Shown in pieces: positions 1-10,476 of a stretch of DNA of 64,000 nt; within the stretch, counting starts at the first letter, position 1; the number at the start of each line of letters is the position of its first letter. The translations under genes and the position numbers were made by a program. The notes under the pieces were generated by a model. The model was not told where the DNA came from. It made no database searches and was given only the letters and a program-made list of their open reading frames with translations. The DNA comes from Flavobacterium proteolyticum (GTDB lineage: Bacteria > Bacteroidota > Bacteroidia > Flavobacteriales > Flavobacteriaceae): assembly GCF_015223105.1 (NCBI RefSeq), contig NZ_JADFTZ010000001.1, positions 186,001-250,000 on the forward strand. Reading direction: 5' to 3'.

Positions 1-2456
1 CCGATACGCAAAAATGTCTTCGTGTTTCGGGAAAACACAATGATTTAGAAGATGTAGGTTTTGACACCTATCACCACACTATGTTTGAAATGCTAGGAAA
101 CTGGTCGTTTGGCGATTATTTCAAGAAAGAAGCATTGGCTTGGGCTTGGGAATTCTTAACTGAAGTATTAAAGTTAGACAAAGACCGTTTGTATGTTTCT
201 GTTTTTGAAGGAAATCCAGCAGAGAACGTTCCATTTGACCAAGAAGCATTTGATATTTGGAAACAATACGTTTCGGAAGATCGAATCATTTTAGGAAATA
301 AAAAAGACAACTTCTGGGAAATGGGTGACCAAGGTCCGTGTGGTCCATGTTCGGAAATTCATATCGATTTAAGAACTGACGCTGAAAGAAATGCTGTTTC
401 AGGAAGAGAATTAGTAAATGCTGATCATCCGCAAGTTGTAGAAATTTGGAACAACGTATTTATGGAATTCAACCGCAAAGCCGATGGTTCGTTAGAAAAA
501 TTACCAGCGCAACACGTAGATACTGGAATGGGATTTGAGCGTTTGTGTATGGCAATGCAAAACGTAACTTCAAATTACGATACGGATGTTTTCACGCCGC
601 TTATCGCGAAAGTTGAAGAAATTACAGGATTAAAGTACACTTCAAACGAAGTTAAAAACATATCAGAAGAGCAAAACAAAACGAACATTGCGATTCGTGT
701 AATTGTGGATCACGTTCGTGCGGTAGCTTTTGCTATTGCTGATGGACAATTACCATCAAATACTGGCGCCGGTTATGTAATTCGTAGAATTTTACGTCGT
801 GCGATTCGTTACGGATTTACGTTTTTAGGAACTAAAGAACCTTTCATTAATAAATTGGTTGAAGTTTTAGCGAATCAAATGGGTGAATTTTTCCCTGAGA
901 TTAAATCGCAACAACAATTGGTTACCAATGTAATTCGCGAAGAAGAAGCATCTTTCTTAAGAACATTAGAACAAGGATTACAATTATTAGATAAAGTAGT
1001 TGCGGAAACGTCAGGAAAAGAAGTTTCTGGAGAGAAAGTATTCGAATTGTACGATACTTTTGGTTTCCCGAAAGACTTAACGGCTTTGATTTTAAAAGAA
1101 AAAGGCTATTCGTTTAACGAAACAGAATTCGAAACCGAATTACAAAAACAAAAAGCGCGTTCTCGTGCAGCTTCTGAAGTAACTACTGACGACTGGAAAG
1201 TTTTAATTGACGGAAATGTAGAAACATTCGTAGGTTATGACCAAACGGAAAATAATGTTAAAATCACCAGAATTCGTAAAGTAGATTCTAAAAAAGATGG
1301 TGTTTTGTACCAAATTGTTTTAGATAATACGCCGTTCTATCCAGAAGGTGGTGGACAAGTTGGAGATAAAGGAACTTTAGTTTCAGCAAACGAAACGATT
1401 GAAATTATTGATACTAAGAAAGAAAATAACTTAATATTACATTTCGCAAAACAACTTCCTGAAAATGTTGAAGCAGGATTTATGGCAAAAGTAAATACCG
1501 ATTTAAGAACTTCGACTTCTAAAAATCACTCGGCTACGCATTTGATGCATTTAGCTTTGAGAACGATTTTAGGAACGCATGTGGAGCAAAAAGGTTCGTT
1601 GGTAAATCCAAATTACTTGCGTTTCGACTTTTCGCATTTTTCTAAAGTTTCAGACGAAGAATTACGTCAAGTTGAAGCAAGTGTAAATCAACAAATCGAA
1701 GCGCAATTACAATTGGTAGAACACAGAAATATTCCAATCAAAGAAGCATTAGACAAAGGTGCAATGGCTTTATTTGGAGAAAAATATGGCGACAATGTTC
1801 GTATGATTGAATTTGGCGATAGTAAAGAATTATGTGGTGGAATTCACGTGAAAAACACCGCTGATATTTGGCATTTCAAAATTGTTTCAGAAGGAGCTGT
1901 AGCGGCTGGAATTCGTCGTATTGAGGCGATTACTGGTGATGCTGTGAAGGATTTCTACAAAAACCAAGAAAATACGTTAGCAGAAATCAAAGAAGTATTG
2001 AAAAATCCGCAAGATGTTTTAAAATCGGTAGCTTCTTTACAAGATGACAATGCGAAATTGAAAAAACAATTAGAGCAATTAGTTAAAGAAAAAATCGAAG
2101 GATTAAAAAATACATTGGTTGCTGATTTCCAAGAAATCAATGGAATTCAATTTTTAGCCAAACAAGTAGATTTATCCATGAGTTCGACTAAAGATTTAGC
2201 ACAAGCTATCGGAACTTGTAAACCAAATGCGTTTGTGTTTTTAGCTTCTATTGAAGATAATGCTCCAAATATTCACTGCTACATTTCAAAAGAATTAGTT
2301 GCTGAAAAAGGATTAAATGCTGGAAACGTAATCAGAGAATTAGGAAAACTAATCGACGGAAATGGTGGTGGACAACCTTTCTTTGCATCTGGAAAAGGGA
2401 AAAATGTAGGTGGAATTAAAGAAGCGTTGGAGAAAGCAATAACATTTGTGAAATAA
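1..2456 (+). CDS. alaS: Alanyl-tRNA synthetase (5' end missing)
   Basis: Charges tRNA-Ala with alanine in the cytoplasm. The reading frame is open from base 3 to the stop, giving 817 visible residues; the true start lies before the window. The visible N-terminus is already inside the class II catalytic core ([13 protein letters not shown], then [18 protein letters not shown]). It is followed by the tRNA-recognition region ([10 protein letters not shown]), the editing domain with the zinc-binding HSATHLMH and LCGGIHV motifs, and a C-terminal coiled-coil/DHHA1 region ending near [14 protein letters not shown]. All expected AlaRS blocks are present and I see no disruption. A hairpin terminator follows the stop, so it ends its transcription unit. 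Confidence 0.98.
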
Positions 2457-2477
2457 AATAGAAACATTCTATATTAT

Positions 2478-2520
2478 AAAAAAACCTACATTGATACAAA
2501 ATCTTTGTAGGTTTTTTTTT
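2478..2520 (+). terminator. Rho-independent terminator after alaS
   Basis: A perfect 10-bp stem (AAAACCTACA at 2481-2490 with its complement at 2506-2515), a 15-nt loop and a T-run ending at 2520. Confidence 0.85.
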
Positions 2521-2552
2521 CTATATTGCTAACCAATTAACAAACAAAAAAA

Positions 2553-3284
2553 ATGAAAAAACTACTTTACCTTTTTAGTGCTGTTGCGCTAACTTTAACT
2601 TCTTGTTCTAATGAAGATGATTCTAATAATTCATCAAGTACTGTATTATTAACTAAAATAATTGAAACCTTTGAAGACAATAGTACATTAACAACTGAAT
2701 TCCGATATTCTGGAACCAAATTGACTCGAATAACTGATGATGATGGCCGCTTTGACTTTACTTATACAAACGACTTAATAACAGAAGTTAAGTACTATGA
2801 ATCAAACACATTATTACAAACTGAAACTTATCAATATGACTCAAGCGGAAGAGTAACTACATATGTAATAATTGATAATATTGATACTGACTGGGGAAAT
2901 AAAGAAACATATACTTATAATACTAATGGAACAGTATCTGTAAATTATTATTCTGGTGATGCGTCATCTCAGACAAATTTAGACAGAACTGGAACAATTA
3001 CTTTTTTAAATGGAGAAATAAATCAAATTTCTTTTTCTGATGGAAAAATAATAACATATTCCTATGACAATAAAAACAACCCATTTAAAAATGTAACTGG
3101 ATATGATAAAATAAATTTTTGCAATCAAGAAGGGAATGGTGTTTTACACAATATTATTCAAGAAGACGATTCTACTGACTTAGATGATATTTCTACAACA
3201 TACACCTATAATAGTAATGATTATCCAATTACATCAACTGAAACAGGTTTTGAAGTAACTACTGCTCAGTATTTCTATAATTAA
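2553..3284 (+). CDS. Lipoprotein with YD-like repeats, function unknown
   Basis: A 243-residue exported protein. The N-terminus is a lipoprotein signal peptide with Cys18 at the end of the lipobox (LTLTSC), followed by an acidic, Asn/Ser-rich linker (SNEDDSNNSSS). The rest is built of beta-strand units such as FRYSGTKLTRI, FTYTNDLITEVKYY and TYQYDSSGRVTTYV. These resemble the RHS/YD-type repeats seen in many Bacteroidota lipoproteins of unknown function. It stands alone between two terminators. The acidic residues after the lipidated Cys fit the lipoprotein surface-export signal described in this phylum, which is an inference. I do not recognise a specific function. Confidence 0.8.
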   Translation: MKKLLYLFSAVALTLTSCSNEDDSNNSSSTVLLTKIIETFEDNSTLTTEFRYSGTKLTRITDDDGRFDFTYTNDLITEVKYYESNTLLQTETYQYDSSGRVTTYVIIDNIDTDWGNKETYTYNTNGTVSVNYYSGDASSQTNLDRTGTITFLNGEINQISFSDGKIITYSYDNKNNPFKNVTGYDKINFCNQEGNGVLHNIIQEDDSTDLDDISTTYTYNSNDYPITSTETGFEVTTAQYFYN

Positions 3285-3303
3285 ATCTTCAAACAAAAGA
3301 TAC

Positions 3304-3340
3304 AAATCCCGATAAGCTTCAAACCTTATCGGGATTTTTT
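3304..3340. terminator. Bidirectional terminator
   Basis: A perfect 12-bp stem (AATCCCGATAAG at 3305-3316 with its complement at 3325-3336) with A- and T-tracts on either side. It lies between convergent genes and can serve both. Confidence 0.85.
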
Positions 3341-3723
3341 TATTCTACTACTGCAATTGCTTCAATCTCAATCAACCAATCTTTTCTGCCTAAATTTTCT
3401 ACGCCTACTAAAGTGCTTGCTGGATAATTTTCATTTCCTAGAAATTCCTTTCTAACTTTTCTGAAAATAGGCAAATCAATTTCAGGGTTAAAATTTACGA
3501 TGTACGTATTCATTTTTACTACATCTTTAAAAGTAGCATTGCAATTGATAAGTTGTTTTTCTAAATTTTGAAATGTCGTAATGGTTTGCGCTTCTAAATC
3601 TACACCATCACCTATTTGTCCTGAAATGTATAGCGTTTTGAAATTTCCAGTTTTTACTAAAACGGTTTGAGAGAAACCTTCGCTAGGTTCGATGTATACT
3701 TTTTCAATCATTTTGTATTGCAT
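3340..3723 (-). CDS. RidA/YjgF-family protein
   Basis: 127 residues, the usual size of the Rid family (trimeric enamine/imine deaminases that remove reactive 2-aminoacrylate-type intermediates). The family's features are visible: the ISGQIG strand near residue 35, the central FQNLEKQL helix with VKMNTYIVNF, the PASTLVGVENL stretch and the terminal IEIEAIAVV strand. The usual Arg position near the C-terminal strand is not clearly aligned (LGRKDWLIEIEA), so it may be one of the non-RidA Rid subfamilies. A second ATG four codons in (MIEK, at 3711) is an equally plausible start. It is monocistronic and convergent with the lipoprotein gene. Confidence 0.88.
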   Translation of the reverse strand: MQYKMIEKVYIEPSEGFSQTVLVKTGNFKTLYISGQIGDGVDLEAQTITTFQNLEKQLINCNATFKDVVKMNTYIVNFNPEIDLPIFRKVRKEFLGNENYPASTLVGVENLGRKDWLIEIEAIAVVE

Positions 3724-3765
3724 TAAATCTTGAGTAAAAATACTCGTTTTTTGTAAAAAGTAGTT

Positions 3766-3773
3766 TAAATTTG
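3766..3773 (+). promoter_or_regulatory. -7 promoter element for the GSCFA gene
   Basis: TAAATTTG matches the Bacteroidota TAnnTTTG consensus exactly and lies 20 bp before the TTG start at 3793. I see no well-spaced -33 TTG. Confidence 0.5.
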
Positions 3774-3792
3774 GACTTTAAACCCAACTGAT

Positions 3793-4746
3793 TTGCAATT
3801 CACTACCAAAATACCCGTTCAAAAAAGCGCTTTCCCAATCGATTACGATTCGAAAGTTATGTTATTGGGTTCGTGTTTTGCGGAAAATATGGGTAAAAAG
3901 TTTGATTATTTTAAATTTCAAGCTATTACCAATCCGTTTGGAATTATTTTTAATGCGGTTTCTTTAGAAAAGTTAATCCGTCGCGCTGTTGAAAATAGAA
4001 CTTTTACCGAAAACGATATTTTCTTTCATAACGATTTATGGCATTGCTATGAAGTGCATTCTGAATTATCAAATCCAAATAAAGAAGTATTTTTGAGTAA
4101 TTTGAATTCTATTTTAGAATCAACATATCGACACATTGCTTCATTGACACATTGTATCATCACACTAGGAACTTCATGGGTTTATAGAAATATTGAAACC
4201 TATGAAATCGTTGCCAATTGTCACAAAGTGCCGCAAAAGCAATTTATAAAAGAATTACTTTCGATTAATCAAATTGAAGAAAGTTTACAAAGTATTATTT
4301 CATTAATACATTCGGTAAATCCAAATTGCAATTTTATTTTTACGGTTTCTCCTGTACGCCATATAAAAGATGGATTTGCAGAAAACACGCTAAGTAAAGC
4401 GCATTTGATTGCGGCAATTCACAAAACAATCACCCATCATCCATCACCCATCACCTATTTTCCTTCTTACGAAATTATGATGGACGAATTGCGCGATTAT
4501 CGTTTTTATGCTGAAGATATGTTGCATCCGAATCAAACTGCAATCGATTATATCTGGATTCAATTCTTTGAAAATTATATTTCTGAATCGGTGTTTGGAT
4601 TGATGAATGAGATTTGCTCTATTCAAAAAGGATTGCAACATCGTCCGTTTAATCCGAATACAGAAAATCATCAGAAATTCTTAAATCAACTCGATTTAAA
4701 AATCAAAGCCATTAAAAATCAATATCCTTTTATAAAATTTTGTTAA
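3793..4746 (+). CDS. GSCFA-domain protein
   Basis: 317 residues with the family-defining motif LGSCFAENMG near residue 27. GSCFA proteins are uncharacterised and are thought to be SGNH/GDSL-like hydrolases. I place the start at a TTG codon because the residues before the motif (MQFTTKIPVQKSAFPIDYDSK) match the usual family N-terminus; the first ATG would cut into the domain. Further conserved stretches are NPFGIIFN, HSELSNPN, ITLGTSWVYR, FTVSPVRHIKDG and FPSYEIMMDELRDYRFY, so the protein is complete. Residues near 213-222 (TITHHPSPIT) are encoded by a short 7-bp repeat array. The stop codon touches the first palindromic operator of the next operon. Confidence 0.9.
   Translation: MQFTTKIPVQKSAFPIDYDSKVMLLGSCFAENMGKKFDYFKFQAITNPFGIIFNAVSLEKLIRRAVENRTFTENDIFFHNDLWHCYEVHSELSNPNKEVFLSNLNSILESTYRHIASLTHCIITLGTSWVYRNIETYEIVANCHKVPQKQFIKELLSINQIEESLQSIISLIHSVNPNCNFIFTVSPVRHIKDGFAENTLSKAHLIAAIHKTITHHPSPITYFPSYEIMMDELRDYRFYAEDMLHPNQTAIDYIWIQFFENYISESVFGLMNEICSIQKGLQHRPFNPNTENHQKFLNQLDLKIKAIKNQYPFIKFC
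4429..4456 (+). repeat. Four 7-bp repeats inside the GSCFA gene
   Basis: Units ATCACCC, ATCATCC, ATCACCC, ATCACCT in direct tandem. They are more C-rich than the flanking coding sequence and fall where the protein has a hydrophilic loop, so they are tolerated in frame. Confidence 0.75.
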
Positions 4747-4767
4747 AATACGTCAATTGTCGTATTT
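4746..4767. promoter_or_regulatory. 22-bp palindromic operator, copy 1
   Basis: AAATACG and CGTATTT arms around TCAATTGT; 20 of the 22 positions are symmetric. It starts 42 bp before a weak -7-like element (4788-4795), so its centre is about 35 bp upstream of the -7 box, the position expected of an activator touching RNA polymerase. Near-identical sites occur at 7578-7599 and 10289-10310. The likely binder is the LuxR-type regulator encoded at 9630, which is an inference. Confidence 0.75.
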
Positions 4768-4787
4768 CCTACTTTATCCTTTTTTGT

Positions 4788-4795
4788 GAATTTTG
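4788..4795 (+). promoter_or_regulatory. Weak -7 element of the exported-protein operon
   Basis: GAATTTTG, 7 of 8 matches to TAnnTTTG, no good -33 element, same distance from the palindrome as in the two other copies. The start codon is at 4826. Confidence 0.6.
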
Positions 4796-4825
4796 ACTTA
4801 TCAATAAATATAAAAATTCACACTT

Positions 4826-5305
4826 ATGAAAACTTTAAAAAATTCAACTCTATTTTGTTTATTACTTTTATTCGTTTCGATTCAATTCGCAACAGCTCAA
4901 AAACTAGTTAATGCATCGGAAGTTACACCTTCTTTATTAAAAGAAACTTGCGACAATGCCTACATAGAAGTATTAGAAGTTAAAGACACTTATATAAAAA
5001 TTAAAAACACTTATAGTGTCTATCTTGATATTGACGACAATAAAAGGTTCGTAACATTTAGTAGCGTTTATAATCTTGTTGATGGTGCTTCAAAAAAAGA
5101 TGCTTTAGAATTAGTAAACAAATTAAATGCTGAAGTAGCTTTAATTAAGGTTTACTATTCCGAAAGCACAAACACTATTACTTATTTCTATTATTTTTGG
5201 ACAGAAGGCGGATTTACTCAAAAATCATTAATTAGTTCGTTACGTCTTTATAAAACAGCATTGGATTTATCTTTAGATAAAGATACAGGTAAACTTATTA
5301 AATAA
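4826..5305 (+). CDS. Exported protein of unknown function, first gene of operon
   Basis: 159 residues with a clear signal peptide (hydrophobic LFCLLLLFVSIQFA, cleavage after TAQ near residue 25). The mature part is small and mixed alpha/beta (TPSLLKETCDNAYIEVLEV, a strand-rich centre, YFYYFWTEGGFTQKSL). It has a single Cys and no motif I recognise. It is the first of three genes whose products all carry signal peptides, with gaps of 8 and 17 bp, so they are probably one transcript starting from the palindrome-controlled promoter. The LysM/TonB families and other common small periplasmic families do not fit. Confidence 0.75.
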   Translation: MKTLKNSTLFCLLLLFVSIQFATAQKLVNASEVTPSLLKETCDNAYIEVLEVKDTYIKIKNTYSVYLDIDDNKRFVTFSSVYNLVDGASKKDALELVNKLNAEVALIKVYYSESTNTITYFYYFWTEGGFTQKSLISSLRLYKTALDLSLDKDTGKLIK

Positions 5306-5313
5306 AAATATTT

Positions 5314-5685
5314 ATGAAAATAAGAATCGCCTTTGTATTCCTTGTGATTAATTTTTTTTACAGCGAATCCATCTGGTCTCAAAGACCTGTTCTTACAGAC
5401 GAAGAAACGGTTTCTGAAATGGTTATATCCGAAATGCATGAAGTATTTCAATCTCCTGATTTTATTAAAAAGAAAAACAAGAAATTTTCTGAAGTAACAG
5501 GCGACATGACTATTGACATTACTGTAATTCAGAGCGGAAAAGTTGCCACTTTTTTTAAAGTAGATAGCACAATAAAAGACATCGATTTTATCAACTTTAT
5601 GTCAGAATACATTCTTACACACAAATTCAAATTCAAATTAGAGAAGAAGAAAAGATACAAAATTAGATACAACATATCATTTTAA
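5314..5685 (+). CDS. Small exported protein, TonB C-terminal-like fold possible
   Basis: 123 residues with a signal peptide (IRIAFVFLVINFFYSESIWSQ). The mature domain runs DMTIDITVIQSGKVATFFKVDSTIKD, a helix (DFINFMSEYILTHKFKF) and a final strand (KRYKIRYNISF). This strand-strand-helix-strand order resembles the C-terminal domain of TonB-like proteins (I-x-I-x-V-x-x-x-G-x-V). However, the proline-rich spacer and inner-membrane anchor of a real TonB are missing, so I treat this as a fold guess only. It lies 8 bp after the previous gene and 17 bp before the beta-propeller gene. Confidence 0.7.
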   Translation: MKIRIAFVFLVINFFYSESIWSQRPVLTDEETVSEMVISEMHEVFQSPDFIKKKNKKFSEVTGDMTIDITVIQSGKVATFFKVDSTIKDIDFINFMSEYILTHKFKFKLEKKKRYKIRYNISF

Positions 5686-5702
5686 CATTAAAAACGAAAC
5701 TC

Positions 5703-7517
5703 ATGAAAAAATCAATTATTATGTACTCTCTTCTTGTAGCAATAGTGGGAACTACTCCTGCAACTGCTCAATTTGGGAAGTTGTTAGACAAAGTCAAAGG
5801 AAGTGGTGGTTCTAAAAAATCAGGAAGTTTTGCTACTGTATGGGAATCAGAATTTGGAAATAAAGCTACAAGATTGGCAGTAAACAATCATGATGGCTCT
5901 TATATTTTAGGAACAGATGACAACTCTGCTTCAGTATTAAACGGAGAAGGAAAATTAATTTGGAATGGCGATTACAAAAACATCACAACCAACAAAACTA
6001 ACAAATGTGAATATCAATATGTTATTTGGAAAGATAATGGAGGTTATTTGTTCTTGTTTGACGAAAGAAAAATGGGAACTGACCGCGTTGCTGTAATTGA
6101 TATTGCTTCGGGAAAAGAATTATGGAATTCTGAATTGTACCAAAATTTACTTCCAAAAGGAACAAAATCAGAAGATGGTGCTGATCAAGGGGAATTAGAA
6201 ACTGTAAAATACATTTACGAATTAGATGCCTTTTTAATTTCTCAAAAAGCTTCTGTTATTTTAGTAAAAGCTAACACTGGAGAAAAAGTTTGGGAAACCA
6301 ATCGTTTCAAAGGTGGTGTTGGAAAATACATTTACGATGCTAAAAAGAATGAAATTATTATGGTGAATTTTAAACCAACGGCATTAGGGGCTTTGTTTGC
6401 AGGTTTCAAAAATCAGATGGTGAAATTAAACGCTAGCAATGGAGAAATCATTTGGGAAAACACTTTTATGGGAACTGTAGAAAAAGAATTAGTTACCAGA
6501 AGAGCCATCTTAGATTTATGGATTAAAGGCGACAAAGTATTCATGTATTTGAATGGATTACAAGTTTTCAATATCAATTCTGGACAAAAACTTTGGGAAT
6601 CGGTATATGAAAATGACATGGATGGTGGTGGCGGAGGCATGTTCTCTAATACAACGCAAAAAAAATATTACAGAACAATTGCTGATCCATTATTTACAGA
6701 CAATGCGGTTTACATTGTAATGTTAGGTGGAAGAGACCGAGCTAAATACGTTCAAAAACATGATTTAGAAAGTGGTAAAATCATGTGGACGTCTGAGAAA
6801 ATTACAGGTGCTTTTTCTATGCCAAATATTTACAGATCGGGTGATAAAGTAATTGTTCAAGTTGGTGGAAAAGTACAAGTTCAAGAGTACAGAAAAGAAC
6901 AACAACAAAGTTTGTATGGAGGAACTTACACTTCACTTGTTCCTTACATTTATTGGGATTATAAAGCGCAAAAAAATAGCTTATTAGCTTTAGATGACAA
7001 AACAGGAACTACTTCATGGCGTTCTGAAAAATTTGACAAACGTATTACAGATTTCATTATTCATGAAAATAAAAATGTTTTTGTTGGAGATGGCGATCAA
7101 TTCTATTGTTATGACATTGCTTCGGGAAAACAAATTTTTGATGTAAAACACAACGATGCTGGCGTTGGTAAAGCTACTGACGTAATTGATTTTGGAGAAA
7201 CTGTAGTTGTATTATCTGAAAAAGGATTAGCGTCTTACAATAAAAAAGATGGTTCAAGAGCATATGCAACAGAGAAAATCAGAGGTGTAGATTATTTCTA
7301 CGATGTAAATGGAAATTACTTTTTACGTGATCAAAGAAACAGTAAAAATATTCTTCACGCAATTGATATGACGAATGGAGAAACAAAAGGTTCAGTTCAA
7401 TCAAAAGGAAAAGGCGGAAGTCCAAAATACGGTGACGGTTTAGACATTACTGACGATGGAGAATTCATTTTTGCTTTTAAAGGCAAAAAAGTAGAGAAAA
7501 TTAAAGTGAACAATTAA
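5703..7517 (+). CDS. PQQ/BamB-like beta-propeller protein, exported
   Basis: 604 residues with an N-terminal signal peptide (IIMYSLLVAIVGTTPATAQ). The mature chain is a series of PQQ-type propeller blades whose strands end in Trp motifs such as GEGKLIWNGD, ASGKELWNSELY, NTGEKVWETNRF, SNGEIIWENTF, NSGQKLWESVY, ESGKIMWTSEK and KTGTTSWRSEKF. No quinone-binding or lipid-anchor residues are obvious, so a scaffold role in the periplasm is more likely than dehydrogenase activity. A Gly-rich loop (MDGGGGGMF) lies near residue 305. It is the last gene of the operon and is followed by a strong terminator. Confidence 0.85.
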   Translation: MKKSIIMYSLLVAIVGTTPATAQFGKLLDKVKGSGGSKKSGSFATVWESEFGNKATRLAVNNHDGSYILGTDDNSASVLNGEGKLIWNGDYKNITTNKTNKCEYQYVIWKDNGGYLFLFDERKMGTDRVAVIDIASGKELWNSELYQNLLPKGTKSEDGADQGELETVKYIYELDAFLISQKASVILVKANTGEKVWETNRFKGGVGKYIYDAKKNEIIMVNFKPTALGALFAGFKNQMVKLNASNGEIIWENTFMGTVEKELVTRRAILDLWIKGDKVFMYLNGLQVFNINSGQKLWESVYENDMDGGGGGMFSNTTQKKYYRTIADPLFTDNAVYIVMLGGRDRAKYVQKHDLESGKIMWTSEKITGAFSMPNIYRSGDKVIVQVGGKVQVQEYRKEQQQSLYGGTYTSLVPYIYWDYKAQKNSLLALDDKTGTTSWRSEKFDKRITDFIIHENKNVFVGDGDQFYCYDIASGKQIFDVKHNDAGVGKATDVIDFGETVVVLSEKGLASYNKKDGSRAYATEKIRGVDYFYDVNGNYFLRDQRNSKNILHAIDMTNGETKGSVQSKGKGGSPKYGDGLDITDDGEFIFAFKGKKVEKIKVNN

Positions 7518-7542
7518 TTGCTTTTATAGTTTGATTAGTTTG

Positions 7543-7575
7543 AGTGGATTGATGTTCTGTCAATCCACTTTTTTT
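7543..7575 (+). terminator. Terminator of the exported-protein operon
   Basis: A perfect 10-bp stem (AGTGGATTGA at 7543-7552 with its complement at 7560-7569), a 7-nt loop and a 7-T run. It ends only 2 bp before the second palindrome. Confidence 0.9.
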
Positions 7576-7577
7576 AT

Positions 7578-7599
7578 AAATACGTCAAATGTCGTATTG
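7578..7599. promoter_or_regulatory. 22-bp palindromic operator, copy 2
   Basis: Identical to copy 1 at 20 of 22 positions (AAATACG arm, TCAAATGT centre, CGTATTG arm). It lies 42 bp, start to start, before GAATTTTA at 7620 and 71 bp before the ATG of the small ORF at 7649. The gap between terminator and start codon holds little else. Confidence 0.75.
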
Positions 7600-7619
7600 A
7601 AAAACGCCTTATTTTAAAC

Positions 7620-7627
7620 GAATTTTA
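7620..7627 (+). promoter_or_regulatory. Weak -7 element before the small membrane-peptide ORF
   Basis: GAATTTTA, one base different from the corresponding element at 4788, at the same distance from the palindrome. No -33 TTG is seen. Confidence 0.55.
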
Positions 7628-7648
7628 CGCTATTAATAATTCTGAATT

Positions 7649-7777
7649 ATGTCTAAATTATTTCTTTCCATCGAATCATTGAGTCAAAAGAAAGAATTGT
7701 TTGTTATTCTTTTTAGACTATTCGTTTTACTTTGCTTGCTATTGAATGTTTATAATCTTATTTATGTATTGCATTAA
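7649..7777 (+). CDS. 42-residue single-span membrane peptide
   Basis: ATG to TAA, 42 residues. A polar N-terminus with charged residues (MSKLFLSIESLSQKKE) is followed by one hydrophobic span (LFVILFRLFVLLCLLLNVYN) and the tail LIYVLH. The tail LLLNVYNLIYVLH matches LLLNCYNIIYCN of the small ORF at 10360 at 8 positions. Both ORFs start exactly 71 bp after the start of a copy of the 22-bp palindrome. The canonical kinase promoter overlaps its 3' end. I infer a real, regulated microprotein; the alternative is a chance ORF in AT-rich spacer DNA. Confidence 0.55.
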   Translation: MSKLFLSIESLSQKKELFVILFRLFVLLCLLLNVYNLIYVLH

Positions 7778-7798
7778 TTTAAACGCACTTTAAATTTG
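7769..7798 (+). promoter_or_regulatory. Canonical promoter of the kinase/regulator pair
   Basis: TTG at 7769-7771, 19-bp spacer, TAAATTTG at 7791-7798: an exact Bacteroidota -33/-7 promoter. It suggests the two-component pair is made constitutively, independent of the palindrome-controlled promoters. Confidence 0.7.
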
Positions 7799-7836
7799 AT
7801 TTTATACTTTTATAGTAAACATTGATCAATTTCAAA

Positions 7837-9609
7837 ATGAAAAACTATATATCTATCCTATTCGCTTTACTTCTTACACAACTCTTTAGTCTTAGTTGGG
7901 GCCAAACCTATTCTGTAAAACAAATCGATTCGGTTTTGAATATGCCATACGATGATATTGTTGCTAATACTTCTAAGTCATTACAACTGTTCAACAAAGT
8001 TTTATCGGATGCTAAAAAGCAAAACTACAAATTAGGTATTGCCAACAGTTATGATAAAATGGCGCTTTGCTATTTTTATCAAAGTAAGTATGATTTACAA
8101 TCTAAATATATTTTCATGGCAATTGATTATTTTAATCAATTAAAGCAATACGATAAAGTTGCCTCGCTTTATGGAAGTTATGGTTATCATTTAAAAAGAC
8201 GCAACTTAGATTCTGGGATTTTGTACATGCAAAAAGGCTTGAAAATTGGTGAAAAACACAATGCAGAATACGAACTTAGAGCTATTTATGACAATTATGG
8301 TGTTTTAAAAGAAATGAAAAAAGAGTACGATAGTGCTTTTTTGTTCTACAATAAATCGCTGACTTTAAAAGAAAAAGCGAATGATAAAATTGGAATCCCT
8401 TACAGTTTGAATAAAATTGGAATGCTCCAATTAACCTTAAAGCAATTTGCTAAAGCGAAACAAAATTTAGACAAAGCCTATCAAATACGACTTGAGATTG
8501 ATGATAAAATTGGAATTGCAGAAAACCTCAATTTCTATGGTTACTACTTTTTTGAAACCAAAGACCATCAAAAATCAATTGAATATTTCAACAAAGCTCT
8601 CAATTATAGTAAAACTTACAATTACAATTATTTAACCCAAGACAATTATCAAAAATTATCTGAGTTGTACGAATTAAATTCCGATTATAAAACGGCATTG
8701 GACAACTTTAAGAACTATACGATTTATAAAGATAGTATTTCCAATATCAACCTTAGAATTAAACAAGCCGAACTTGATACAGCATTTGACACCGAACGAA
8801 AAGAAAAGGAAATTTTAACTCAAAAAGCAGATTTAGCAGTTAAAAACACCTACATCGTAATCATTATTTCTCTTTTAATTTTATCCATAATCGTTGGCTA
8901 TTTTATGCTAAAAAATCAGAAAATGAAAACCCTTCAATTGCAAAAAGAAAACGAATTAAAAGATGCGTTATTAAAAATCGAAACTCAAAATCGACTTCAA
9001 GAACAACGCCTTCAAATTTCGAGAGATTTGCATGATAACATTGGAGCGCAACTTACTTTTATCATTTCTTCTGTAGATTCATTAAAATATGCTTTTGCCG
9101 ATGGAAATCCGAAGTTAGAAGATAAATTAAATAATATTAGTTCGTTTACTAAAGAAACTATTTATGAATTGAGAGATACGATTTGGGCCATGAATAAAGA
9201 AGCAATTACAATTGAAGATTTGAAAACCAGAATTTCAAACTTTATTGATAATGCCCAACTTTCATTAAACGGAATTCAATTTAATTTTAATTTCAACACA
9301 AAATCGTTTCAATCTTTTAGTTCTAGAGACGGAATGAATATTTATCGTTTAATTCAAGAAGCGGTAAATAATGCTATCAAACATGCAAAAGCAAGTCAAA
9401 TTGACGTATCTTTAACAGAATCAAACAACAAAATCAATATTGTTATTTCAGATAACGGTAAAGGATTTGATTTGGCTACAGCCGAAATTGGAAATGGGTT
9501 GAATACCATGAAAAAAAGAGCTACCGAATTAAAAGGAAATTTCAAAATTGAATCCGCAGAAAATGGAACTTCAATATACCTAAGTTTACCTAATCAAACT
9601 GAATTTTAA
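7837..9609 (+). CDS. TPR sensor histidine kinase (HisKA_3 type)
   Basis: 590 residues from the ATG at 7837; a TTG five codons upstream is less likely. Order: signal peptide (ISILFALLLTQLFSLSWGQ), about seven periplasmic TPR-like units (for example AIYDNYGVLKEMKKEYDSAF and SYDKMALCYFYQSKYDLQ), one membrane span at 337-360 (IVIIISLLILSIIVGYFML), a coiled-coil linker, the HisKA_3 dimerisation box with the phospho-acceptor His399 in SRDLHDNIGAQL, and a HATPase domain with EAVNNAIKHAKA, DNGKGFD and GNGLNTMKKRA. This is the NarX/DesK-like kinase class common in Bacteroidota. Its partner gene starts 21 bp downstream. The signal sensed by the TPR domain is unknown. Confidence 0.93.
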   Translation: MKNYISILFALLLTQLFSLSWGQTYSVKQIDSVLNMPYDDIVANTSKSLQLFNKVLSDAKKQNYKLGIANSYDKMALCYFYQSKYDLQSKYIFMAIDYFNQLKQYDKVASLYGSYGYHLKRRNLDSGILYMQKGLKIGEKHNAEYELRAIYDNYGVLKEMKKEYDSAFLFYNKSLTLKEKANDKIGIPYSLNKIGMLQLTLKQFAKAKQNLDKAYQIRLEIDDKIGIAENLNFYGYYFFETKDHQKSIEYFNKALNYSKTYNYNYLTQDNYQKLSELYELNSDYKTALDNFKNYTIYKDSISNINLRIKQAELDTAFDTERKEKEILTQKADLAVKNTYIVIIISLLILSIIVGYFMLKNQKMKTLQLQKENELKDALLKIETQNRLQEQRLQISRDLHDNIGAQLTFIISSVDSLKYAFADGNPKLEDKLNNISSFTKETIYELRDTIWAMNKEAITIEDLKTRISNFIDNAQLSLNGIQFNFNFNTKSFQSFSSRDGMNIYRLIQEAVNNAIKHAKASQIDVSLTESNNKINIVISDNGKGFDLATAEIGNGLNTMKKRATELKGNFKIESAENGTSIYLSLPNQTEF

Positions 9610-9629
9610 TTTAATTAATCATCAAAGAA

Positions 9630-10286
9630 ATGGAGAAAGTAATTAAAACTGTTATCGTAGACGACAATACGTTCCTGATAAAAGCTATCCAGGAAAAGCT
9701 TTCCTTTTTTGATGATATTCAGATAAAATTTACAGCTTTAGATGGTTCTGATTTACTAACTAAAATTAGTAACAATCATAATATCGATGTGATTTTAATG
9801 GATATCGATATGCCTATTTTAAACGGAATAGAAGCCACCGAAATCATAAAAAACAAATATCCGCATATCAAAGTCATCATGTTAACCGTTTTTGATAATG
9901 ATGAGAATATTTTCAACGCAATTAAAGCTGGCGCAGATGGTTATTTATTAAAAGAAGTAGAGCCTAAAACTCTTTATGAAGGCATTATCGACACTTTAAA
10001 CGGAGGAGCAGCTATGAATCCTTCCATTGCCTTGAAAACTTTAAAACTACTTCGCAATCCAATAGATTTAGATAATAAAAAGGAAGAAGAAATCATCAAA
10101 TTAACTACAAGAGAAGTTGATGTTTTAGAACAACTAAGCAAAGGATTAAATTACATTAATATTGCTGAGAATTTATTTTTGTCTCCAGCAACGGTAAGAA
10201 AACATATTGAAAATATTTACACGAAACTTCAAGTTCACAACAAATTAGAAGCAGTTCAAAAAGCAAAGAAAAACAATCTTATTTAA
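9630..10286 (+). CDS. LuxR/NarL-type response regulator
   Basis: 218 residues. The N-terminal receiver domain has the acidic pair VIVDDN, the phospho-acceptor Asp58 (ILMDIDMP) and the conserved Lys in LLKE near residue 110. The C-terminal LuxR helix-turn-helix (LTTREVDVLEQLSKG, LSPATVRKHIENIYTKLQV) occupies about residues 150-215. Such regulators usually bind as dimers to palindromes of about 20 bp. It is co-transcribed with the kinase (gap 20 bp). The third palindrome starts 3 bp after its stop codon, and I infer that this protein is the factor that binds the three sites. Confidence 0.93.
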   Translation: MEKVIKTVIVDDNTFLIKAIQEKLSFFDDIQIKFTALDGSDLLTKISNNHNIDVILMDIDMPILNGIEATEIIKNKYPHIKVIMLTVFDNDENIFNAIKAGADGYLLKEVEPKTLYEGIIDTLNGGAAMNPSIALKTLKLLRNPIDLDNKKEEEIIKLTTREVDVLEQLSKGLNYINIAENLFLSPATVRKHIENIYTKLQVHNKLEAVQKAKKNNLI

Positions 10287-10288
10287 AA

Positions 10289-10310
10289 AAATACGCTATT
10301 CGATGTATTG
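10289..10310. promoter_or_regulatory. 22-bp palindromic operator, copy 3
   Basis: The arms AAATACG and TGTATTG are kept while the 8-bp centre (CTATTCGA) differs. It again lies 42 bp before an AATTTT-core element (10331) and 71 bp before an ATG (10360). The conserved geometry despite a changed centre argues for selection on the arms. Confidence 0.65.
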
Positions 10311-10330
10311 ATTTAAGATTAAAAATCTAG

Positions 10331-10338
10331 CAATTTTA
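10331..10338 (+). promoter_or_regulatory. Weak -7 element before the second small ORF
   Basis: CAATTTTA at the conserved distance from the palindrome. A perfect TAATTTTG also lies at 10347-10354, which would give a nearly leaderless transcript; I cannot decide between the two. Confidence 0.45.
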
Positions 10339-10359
10339 TAACATTATAATTTTGATAAA

Positions 10360-10476
10360 ATGAGGCGGAATAATGTTATTGCATATATAAAGAAAAACAA
10401 AATGACCATGATTATCATAATCATAGTCATTTTATTCTTGTTGCTTAATTGCTATAATATTATATATTGTAACTAA
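10360..10476 (+). CDS. 38-residue single-span membrane peptide
   Basis: ATG to TAA, 38 residues: a basic N-terminus (MRRNNVIAYIKKNKMTM) and one hydrophobic span (IIIIIVILFLLLN) ending CYNIIYCN. The end matches the 7649 peptide (LLLN, YN and IY in register). It overlaps the last 4 bp of the convergent ABC-F gene. A long hairpin (10399-10433) lies inside the coding part. The ORF could therefore be chance coding across a terminator, but the shared tail and identical promoter geometry favour a gene. Confidence 0.45.
   Translation: MRRNNVIAYIKKNKMTMIIIIIVILFLLLNCYNIIYCN
10399..10433. terminator. Long AT-rich hairpin, possible terminator
   Basis: Two 17-nt arms (10399-10415 and 10417-10433) that are complementary except at one position, followed by TTATTC. 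It could end the kinase/regulator transcript or, read on the other strand, the ABC-F transcript. It lies inside the small ORF at 10360. Confidence 0.45.

What the first reader, a model, noticed from the sequence alone, without database searches (positions are those of the whole stretch)
7649..10476. Two paralogous membrane microproteins flanking a histidine kinase
ORFs at 7649-7777 (42 aa) and 10360-10476 (38 aa) each encode a charged N-terminus, one hydrophobic span and a shared ending LLLNxYN(L/I)IYx. Both start codons lie exactly 71 bp after the start of a palindrome copy. By analogy with MgrB, a small membrane peptide that inhibits the kinase PhoQ in enterobacteria, they could be feedback partners of the single-span kinase between them. 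That role is an inference. I know of no description of such a pair.
Basis: partly seen in the sequence, partly recalled or inferred. Interest (0 to 1): 0.85.

Follow-up and report, generated by a model that had tools for sequence, protein, structure and literature searches.

The report
Regulated membrane microproteins beside a kinase
Two tiny, related membrane proteins in a Flavobacterium genome look like real, conserved genes that share control sites with a neighbouring sensor-kinase system; what they do is untested, and they may adjust that system or help carry out its envelope response.

Summary
Both ORFs are at the stated coordinates and both ATGs lie 71 bp after the start of a palindrome copy. 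They are conserved in frame in close Flavobacterium relatives, with pN/pS about 0.28-0.30, and are related to each other. The palindrome is an operator-like site: 72 matches in 79 kinase loci against 0 for the reversed pattern. It sits at a fixed distance from a Bacteroidota -7 box, so the 71 bp is promoter layout and not special to the microproteins. In 398 same-genus genomes a profile gave 14 with strong best hits, each in one syntenic neighbourhood; three of these peptides were new to the profile and found without context. Twelve of 19 genomes with a >=50% identical kinase have it, against 2 of 379 others, a count biased towards kinase loci. Those two keep an ORF2-type gene with its operator but no adjacent kinase, so it is not an obligate partner of the kinase between the ORFs. 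ORF2-type peptides keep two tail cysteines, as MgrB does in its periplasmic part; ORF1-type do not. Kinase feedback is plausible and untested; an envelope-effector role is nearly as likely.

The parts
7578..7598 (+). operator-like palindrome before ORF1
   Evidence: present in 10 of 10 close loci (window included), 7 of them ending CGTATA instead of CGTATT
7621..7628 (+). probable -7 promoter box AATTTTAC, 43 bp after operator start
   Evidence: same place and letters in 10 of 10 close loci; position shared with other operator promoters
7649..7777 (+). ORF1, 42-aa single-span microprotein
   Evidence: 10 of 10 close loci keep frame and length, pN/pS 0.28; variable sites by codon position 14/3/25
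7791..7798 (+). TAAATTTG, possible -7 box of a separate kinase promoter
   Evidence: conserved in 7 of 7 aligned sequences, window included; consensus from passages of PMC6847099 and PMC9723704
7837..9609 (+). histidine kinase: signal-peptide-like start, TPR region, one membrane span, HisKA_3 and HATPase_c
   Evidence: Pfam; span located in relatives
9630..10286 (+). LuxR-type (GerE) response regulator
   Evidence: Pfam
10289..10309 (+). operator-like palindrome before ORF2
10332..10339 (+). probable -7 box AATTTTAT, 43 bp after operator start
10360..10476 (+). ORF2, 38-aa single-span microprotein with Cys31 and Cys37
   Evidence: pN/pS 0.30 over 9 sequences, 0.14 in the tail; orthologue in F. 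odoriferum L126
10399..10433 (.). 17-nt inverted repeat inside ORF2 (10399-10415 / 10417-10433, one mismatch)
   Evidence: read; a repeat with other bases lies in the F. odoriferum orthologue (read)
4746..4766 (+). third operator copy, before the YbjN-like operon
4826..7517 (+). operator-linked operon of three secreted-type proteins (159, 123, 604 aa)

Best explanation
ORF1 and ORF2 are two members of a Flavobacterium microprotein family (32-43 aa, basic N-terminus predicted inside, one membrane span, short outside end, core L-x-L-N-x-Y). Their genes belong to the regulon of the adjacent TPR-sensor kinase / LuxR-type regulator and its sister systems, through an operator AATACG-N8-CGTATT centred about 43 bp before the start site. 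Most likely mechanism: when the kinase is active, the regulator binds the operators and induces its own locus, an envelope operon and the microproteins; these insert in the inner membrane and modulate the kinase or its sister kinases through helix contacts (feedback or connector). Shown by comparison: real genes, paralogy, shared operator and promoter layout, synteny. Inferred: regulator binding, topology, and above all the kinase as target.
For: Purifying selection and codon periodicity. Best profile hits with E<=5e-6 in 14 of 398 genomes all fall in the GSCFA - YbjN operon - HK - RR - ABC-F neighbourhood; for the three peptides not already in the profile (G178, G381, G316) this was not built in. 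Kinase relatives of about 51% identity carry the microprotein directly upstream behind the operator: F. sp. SM15, F. cauense, F. suncheonense. Co-occurrence with a >=50% identical kinase is 12 of 19 against 2 of 379. Operator 72 against control 0 in 856,473 bp of 79 kinase loci, also directly before kinase or regulator genes in several. A second kinase/regulator pair in the same genome is also preceded by the operator and a different single-span small protein of 90 aa. ORF2-type peptides keep two tail cysteines in 12 of 12 sequences.
Against: No interaction or expression data exist here. 7 of 19 kinase-bearing genomes show no microprotein. G178 and G381 keep an ORF2-type gene without the adjacent kinase. 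In some genomes the gene sits in the YbjN operon and not beside the kinase. The kinase membrane span looks alike with and without the microprotein. The co-occurrence count leans towards the kinase, because the profile was built from loci fetched with the kinase, and the genomes are related.
Confidence: 0.42

Rival explanations
1. Envelope effectors: the microproteins are output genes of an envelope-type response and act on other inner-membrane proteins (transporter, protease, insertase, or partners of the YbjN-like or BamB-like operon products), not on the kinase.
For: They share the operator with secreted-type YbjN-like, AgmX/PglI-like (below cut-off) and BamB-like genes. In four loci (L116, L165, L166, L167; two distinct peptides) the microprotein gene follows the YbjN gene directly. 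ORF2 persists with its operator where the kinase has gone.
Against: ORF1 lies directly before the kinase in the close clade and in L068-L070; presence correlates with the kinase (biased as stated).
Confidence: 0.36
2. Membrane-active growth-arrest peptides (TisB-like): regulated small hydrophobic peptides that lower membrane potential under stress.
For: Size, hydrophobicity and regulation would fit. This is analogy from recalled knowledge; no call tests it.
Against: The conserved polar core L-x-L-N-x-Y and the constrained ORF2 tail (pN/pS 0.14) suggest a specific partner. No antisense antitoxin was looked for.
Confidence: 0.1
3. Not functional proteins: ORF1 is a leader and ORF2 an open frame over a transcription terminator.
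For: ORF2 holds a 17-nt inverted repeat between convergent genes, and its first 12 codons show pN/pS 1.10 in the close set. ORF1 lies upstream of the kinase gene, where a leader peptide could sit.
Against: The ORF2 tail beyond the repeat has pN/pS 0.14; ORF1 has 0.28 and no indel in 10 sequences. Protein-level similarity between ORF1 and ORF2. Related peptides recur at three genomic positions.
Confidence: 0.07

Closest known systems
MgrB of enterobacteria (47-aa inhibitor of PhoQ)
   Same: Small single-span inner-membrane protein with N-terminal lysines, gene in the regulon of the system it inhibits (PMC2789325 abstract, PMC8404706 abstract and passages). ORF2-type peptides also keep two cysteines near the outside end.
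   Different: ORF1-type peptides lack the cysteine pair; no tryptophan in either window ORF; outside part only a few residues against about 22; the ORF2 cysteines are 6 residues apart against 11 in MgrB (C28, C39); the kinase is a TPR/HisKA_3 type; inhibition untested.
SafA (B1500; the identity of the two names is recalled) and MzrA of E. coli
   Same: Small membrane proteins that connect or modulate two-component systems (PMC8404706 passages, PMC2727453 listing with start of abstract, a reference title in PMC5399024).
   Different: No sequence comparison made. Their spans are said to be mainly anchors, and the SafA periplasmic part alone is active; here the outside end is very short.
HisKA_3 / LuxR-type two-component systems with TPR sensors in Bacteroidota
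   Same: Kinase matches HisKA_3, HATPase_c and TPR_12; regulator matches Response_reg and GerE.
   Different: The operator-linked small membrane proteins are an addition; the rows that the paper searches listed show no description of it.

Membership tests
MgrB family | Two conserved periplasmic cysteines needed for activity (from PMC8404706): ORF1 type | tested here: not met
   one Cys only, inside the span, invariant in the 5 rows
MgrB family | Two conserved periplasmic cysteines: ORF2 type | tested here: inconclusive
   two tail cysteines (31 and 37 in the window) in 12 of 12 sequences (9 close loci plus L126, L162, L164); spacing differs from MgrB and their place outside the membrane is only predicted
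MgrB family | Conserved Trp (W20) in the span | tested here: not met
   no Trp in ORF1 or ORF2; some relatives have a Trp at other places
MgrB family | Short basic cytosolic N-terminus, one membrane span | tested here: met
   charges and hydrophobicity; topology is predicted only
MgrB family | Gene is in the regulon of the system it inhibits | tested here: inconclusive
   shared operator-like site and promoter layout; regulator binding not tested
MgrB family | Binds and inhibits the sensor kinase | not testable with these tools
   needs two-hybrid and reporter assays
Any family of Pfam or NCBIfam | Profile match above the curated cut-off | tested here: not met
   Pfam: none for both at E<=0.01. 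NCBIfam: none for ORF1 and three sub-cut-off matches for ORF2 (E 0.038, 0.22, 0.95). PHROGs and PADLOC not searched
Operator-defined regulon | Operator at a fixed place relative to the promoter of member genes | tested here: met
   TTTG starts 46 bp after operator start in 25 of 52 non-redundant promoters and TTTAC in 9; means per position 0.80 and 0.23

The most novel reading that the evidence does not exclude
A previously undescribed family of regulon-encoded membrane microproteins is the feedback or cross-talk layer of TPR-kinase/LuxR systems in Flavobacterium: one copy before the kinase, one after the regulator, and in some species one in the output operon, acting on several sister kinases that share one operator. 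The ORF2 type, with its two invariant tail cysteines, could add a redox input as MgrB does. A second, unrelated 90-aa single-span family plays the same part before the sister kinase. This would be an MgrB-like layer in Bacteroidota that arose independently of MgrB.
Probability: 0.35. Interest if true: 0.78.

Novelty: new variant of a known kind. Interest (0 to 1): 0.58.

Why it matters
The small membrane proteins known to tune sensor kinases that I compared this with (MgrB, SafA, MzrA) are from enterobacteria. A conserved, operator-linked microprotein family in Flavobacterium, duplicated around a kinase/regulator pair, would show the same solution in another phylum and gives a compact system in which feedback can be tested. 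The operator and promoter layout found here also gives a direct handle on an envelope-type regulon in Flavobacterium.

Tried and rejected
A promoter reading with -7 boxes right before the ATGs (TAATTCTG 7637-7644, TAATTTTG 10347-10354), which would make both mRNAs leaderless, was dropped: the ORF1 box is not kept in relatives, whereas the box 43 bp after the operator start is shared by unrelated operator genes, and leaderless mRNAs were 5.5% in F. psychrophilum (passage of PMC9723704). The downstream box of ORF2 is well kept in most relatives, so for ORF2 alone this reading is not excluded.

I first read the G178 hit as a bare terminator remnant of ORF2; reading the other strand showed a full 37-aa ORF with an operator 70 bp upstream.

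An RNA family was sought: one sub-threshold Rfam match (L20 leader, 23.5 bits against a cut-off of 58.7), taken as chance. Kinase membrane-span differences between loci with and without the microprotein gave no clear signal. A search of 299 genomes drawn from the family found the microprotein only in the window's own genome, so I treat the family as restricted to the genus as sampled.

Rows dropped before the co-occurrence count: profile hits with E above 5e-6 as the best hit in five genomes (G366, G245, G066, G163, G271; G366 may be real, since it lies before a 40% kinase), and kinase hits below 50% identity. G148 was counted as kinase-bearing on a partial match (53%); G139 (47%, partial) was not. 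One search scored only three kinase candidates per genome. Of the 62 genomes with a match at E<=0.1 to ORF1 alone, the 55 weak ones were not followed one by one.

Structure prediction was not used: only single chains can be folded, which cannot test the kinase contact.
Full report
What is there. The window lies in a 2.83 Mb genome; the nearest named relatives of its kinase are in Flavobacterium, among them F. sasangense, F. aquaticum, F. cheniae and F. lacisediminis. Around the finding the gene order is: GSCFA-like gene (label recalled, 3793-4746), operator, three-gene operon (159-aa YbjN match, 123-aa with a sub-cut-off AgmX/PglI match, 604-aa PQQ_2/BamB match), operator, ORF1, TPR/HisKA_3 kinase, LuxR-type regulator, operator, ORF2, and a convergent ABC-F-type gene (label recalled; Pfam ABC_tran and ABC_tran_Xtn).

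The observation. In the first 13 kb of the window a scan for intergenic ATG ORFs of 25-95 aa with one hydrophobic span gives ORF1, ORF2 and a 28-aa frame antisense to ORF2. The same scan over 18 stretches gives 16 such ORFs, 10 of which have an operator within 130 bp upstream.

They behave as genes. ORF1 is intact in 10 of 10 close loci (window included), pS 0.274 and pN 0.077 over all pairs, ratio 0.28; variable sites by codon position are 14/3/25 in 9 distinct sequences. ORF2 is complete in 9 of those 10 loci (ratio 0.30); in the tenth it is cut by a contig end, and the last 25 residues lie on another contig of that assembly (G023). The ORF2 tail beyond the inverted repeat has ratio 0.14, but its first 12 codons have 1.10, so its N-terminus is not shown to be constrained. 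Codon-position counts for 11 distinct ORF2 sequences are 16/14/30. Both start codons have A at -3 (read), a positive determinant in F. johnsoniae (passages of PMC6847099).

They are paralogues. Local alignment score 61 against a mean of 31.8 for shuffles that keep the polar and hydrophobic blocks, 0 of 2000 reaching it. Profile comparison of five ORF1-type with seven ORF2-type sequences: probability 95.2, E 2.7e-8. Across 16 members the columns L30, L32 and N33 of ORF1 are invariant and Y35 is nearly so. Not every pair in the family is supported by the shuffle test: the YbjN-operon type (L116) against the SM15 type is reached by 232 of 2000 shuffles, so that branch rests on synteny and on its similarity to ORF1 (12 of 2000) and ORF2 (31 of 2000). 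ORF2-type peptides keep two tail cysteines in 12 of 12 sequences; ORF1 has one cysteine, in the span.

The palindrome is an operator-like site. AATA[C/A]G-N8-C[G/T]TATT occurs 72 times in 79 kinase loci (856,473 bp), in 46 of 79 loci; the reversed pattern occurs 0 times. Leaving out the eight closest loci it is 54 against 0, in 38 of 71 loci; 33 of 79 loci have none. In ten whole genomes the same pattern gives 43 sites against 13 for the control (summed; this pattern misses the window's ORF2 copy, which ends TGTATT). In the window's genome the pattern AATACR-N8-YGTATT gives 7 sites against 1 control. Five of the seven precede genes at a promoter-like distance, and these five lie within 37 kb: the three in the window, one after another regulator gene and before a 491-aa secreted-type gene, and one before a 90-aa single-span ORF that precedes a second TPR kinase and regulator.

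The promoter layout explains the 71 bp. I collected operators with an ATG ORF of at least 34 aa starting about 51-110 bp downstream, on either strand, and thinned them to 52 that are under 70% identical; some of these are surely chance pairings on the wrong strand. Aligned without gaps on the operator, TTTG starts at +46 in 25 of 52 and TTTAC at +46 in 9; the means per position are 0.80 and 0.23. In Flavobacterium the -7 element TAnnTTTG spans -12 to -5 (passages of PMC9723704 and PMC6847099). That puts the start site about 54 bp after the operator start, the operator centre near -43, and a leader of about 17 nt before ORF1 and ORF2. ORF1 starts at 71 in five and at 72 in five of 10 close loci while the box stays at +43 in all ten. 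So the equal spacing follows from a shared promoter design.

Distribution. A search with ORF1 alone gave matches at E<=0.1 in 62 of 398 genomes, of which 7 (own genome included) are strong (E below 1e-16); the others have E above 0.003. The profile gave 19 of 398 at E<=0.003, of which 14 have a best hit with E<=5e-6. In 7 of the 14 (close clade) the kinase coordinates follow the microprotein coordinates; in the other 7 tblastn of neighbour genes places the hit next to the GSCFA-like gene together with the kinase, YbjN or ABC-F-type gene. This is partly circular: the profile was built from loci fetched with the kinase, and four of those seven hits (G011, G187, G136, G148) are the same peptides as rows of the profile. 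The three that are new, G178, G381 and G316, were found by sequence alone and lie in the same neighbourhood. Three placements occur: before the kinase (close clade, SM15, F. cauense, F. suncheonense), after the regulator (close clade, F. odoriferum), and directly after the YbjN gene (L116, L165, L166, L167; two distinct peptides). In SM15, F. cauense and F. suncheonense an upstream ATG 67-70 bp from the operator gives a 43-aa product; the shorter 36-aa form is also possible. A search of 299 genomes of the family, 236 genera, found only the window's genome.

The test of the partner idea. A kinase of at least 50% identity is present in 19 of 398 genomes (one of them partial); 12 of these have the microprotein, against 2 of the other 379 (Fisher p 1.6e-16; without the close clade 5 of 12 against 2 of 379, p 2e-7). 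Relatedness and the way the profile was built inflate these values. Seven kinase-bearing genomes show no microprotein (G096, G147, G184, G191, G267, G379, G409). In ten kinase loci of 53-61% identity (two cut short upstream) the scan found no ORF of this type, only 92-aa ORFs of another type in four and two unrelated 34-aa frames. In G178 and G381 the ORF2-type gene and its operator lie between the GSCFA-like and ABC-F-type genes with no kinase or regulator match there. G178, 99% complete, has one kinase match at E<=1e-20, a 42% identical sister about 25 kb away behind its own operator and 90-aa ORF. G381 is 84% complete and showed none. So the microprotein follows the regulon more closely than it follows this one kinase.

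Mechanism. The parts fit a loop in which the regulator induces small membrane proteins that act back on the kinase family, as MgrB does on PhoQ (PMC2789325 abstract, PMC8404706 abstract and passages). The same parts fit envelope effectors. I give the kinase-modulator reading 0.42 and the effector reading 0.36. Membership in the MgrB family is not supported: no tryptophan in the span, no cysteine pair in ORF1, a cysteine pair of different spacing in ORF2. That lowers the claim of kinship and leaves the claim of similar working open.

Literature. Searches (small membrane proteins with histidine kinases or two-component systems in Flavobacterium or Bacteroidetes, small ORFs with Ribo-seq, one form of the operator sequence, TPR/LuxR systems, feedback peptides, the flavobacterial promoter, YbjN) listed no paper whose title or shown abstract describes this family or operator. 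Searches listed only part of their hits (15 of 20, 12 of 177, 15 of 26), and the library holds open-licence PubMed Central papers only, so a description elsewhere is not excluded.

Noticed in passing
G000 C9:170510-170794 (outside the window); L063, L066, L067, L069, L093; L187 (G178): A second small membrane protein family (90-94 aa, one span at the N-terminus, then a charged, coiled-coil-like part). The operator precedes 6 of the 7 copies seen, and in G000, G178 and F. cauense the gene directly precedes another TPR kinase.
   Followed up: partly
window 10399-10433: ORF2 codes across a 17-nt inverted repeat between convergent genes; the F. odoriferum orthologue has a repeat with different bases at the same place, so the stretch may be both coding and a terminator.
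   Followed up: partly
L069 (F. cauense) 1065-9050: GSCFA-like gene, microprotein, kinase, regulator, operator, OmpA-like gene (label recalled), 230-aa gene, operator, 93-aa ORF and second kinase lie in one run; in the window's genome the matching blocks are about 20 kb apart.
   Followed up: no
window 7791-7798: A conserved TAAATTTG box just after ORF1 suggests the kinase also has a promoter independent of the operator.
   Followed up: partly
G000 C9:157824-161884: A third kinase/regulator pair with the operator directly after the regulator gene and before a 483/491-aa secreted-type gene (ATG +71); a one-letter variant of the operator lies at C9:162084 just upstream of that pair.
   Followed up: partly
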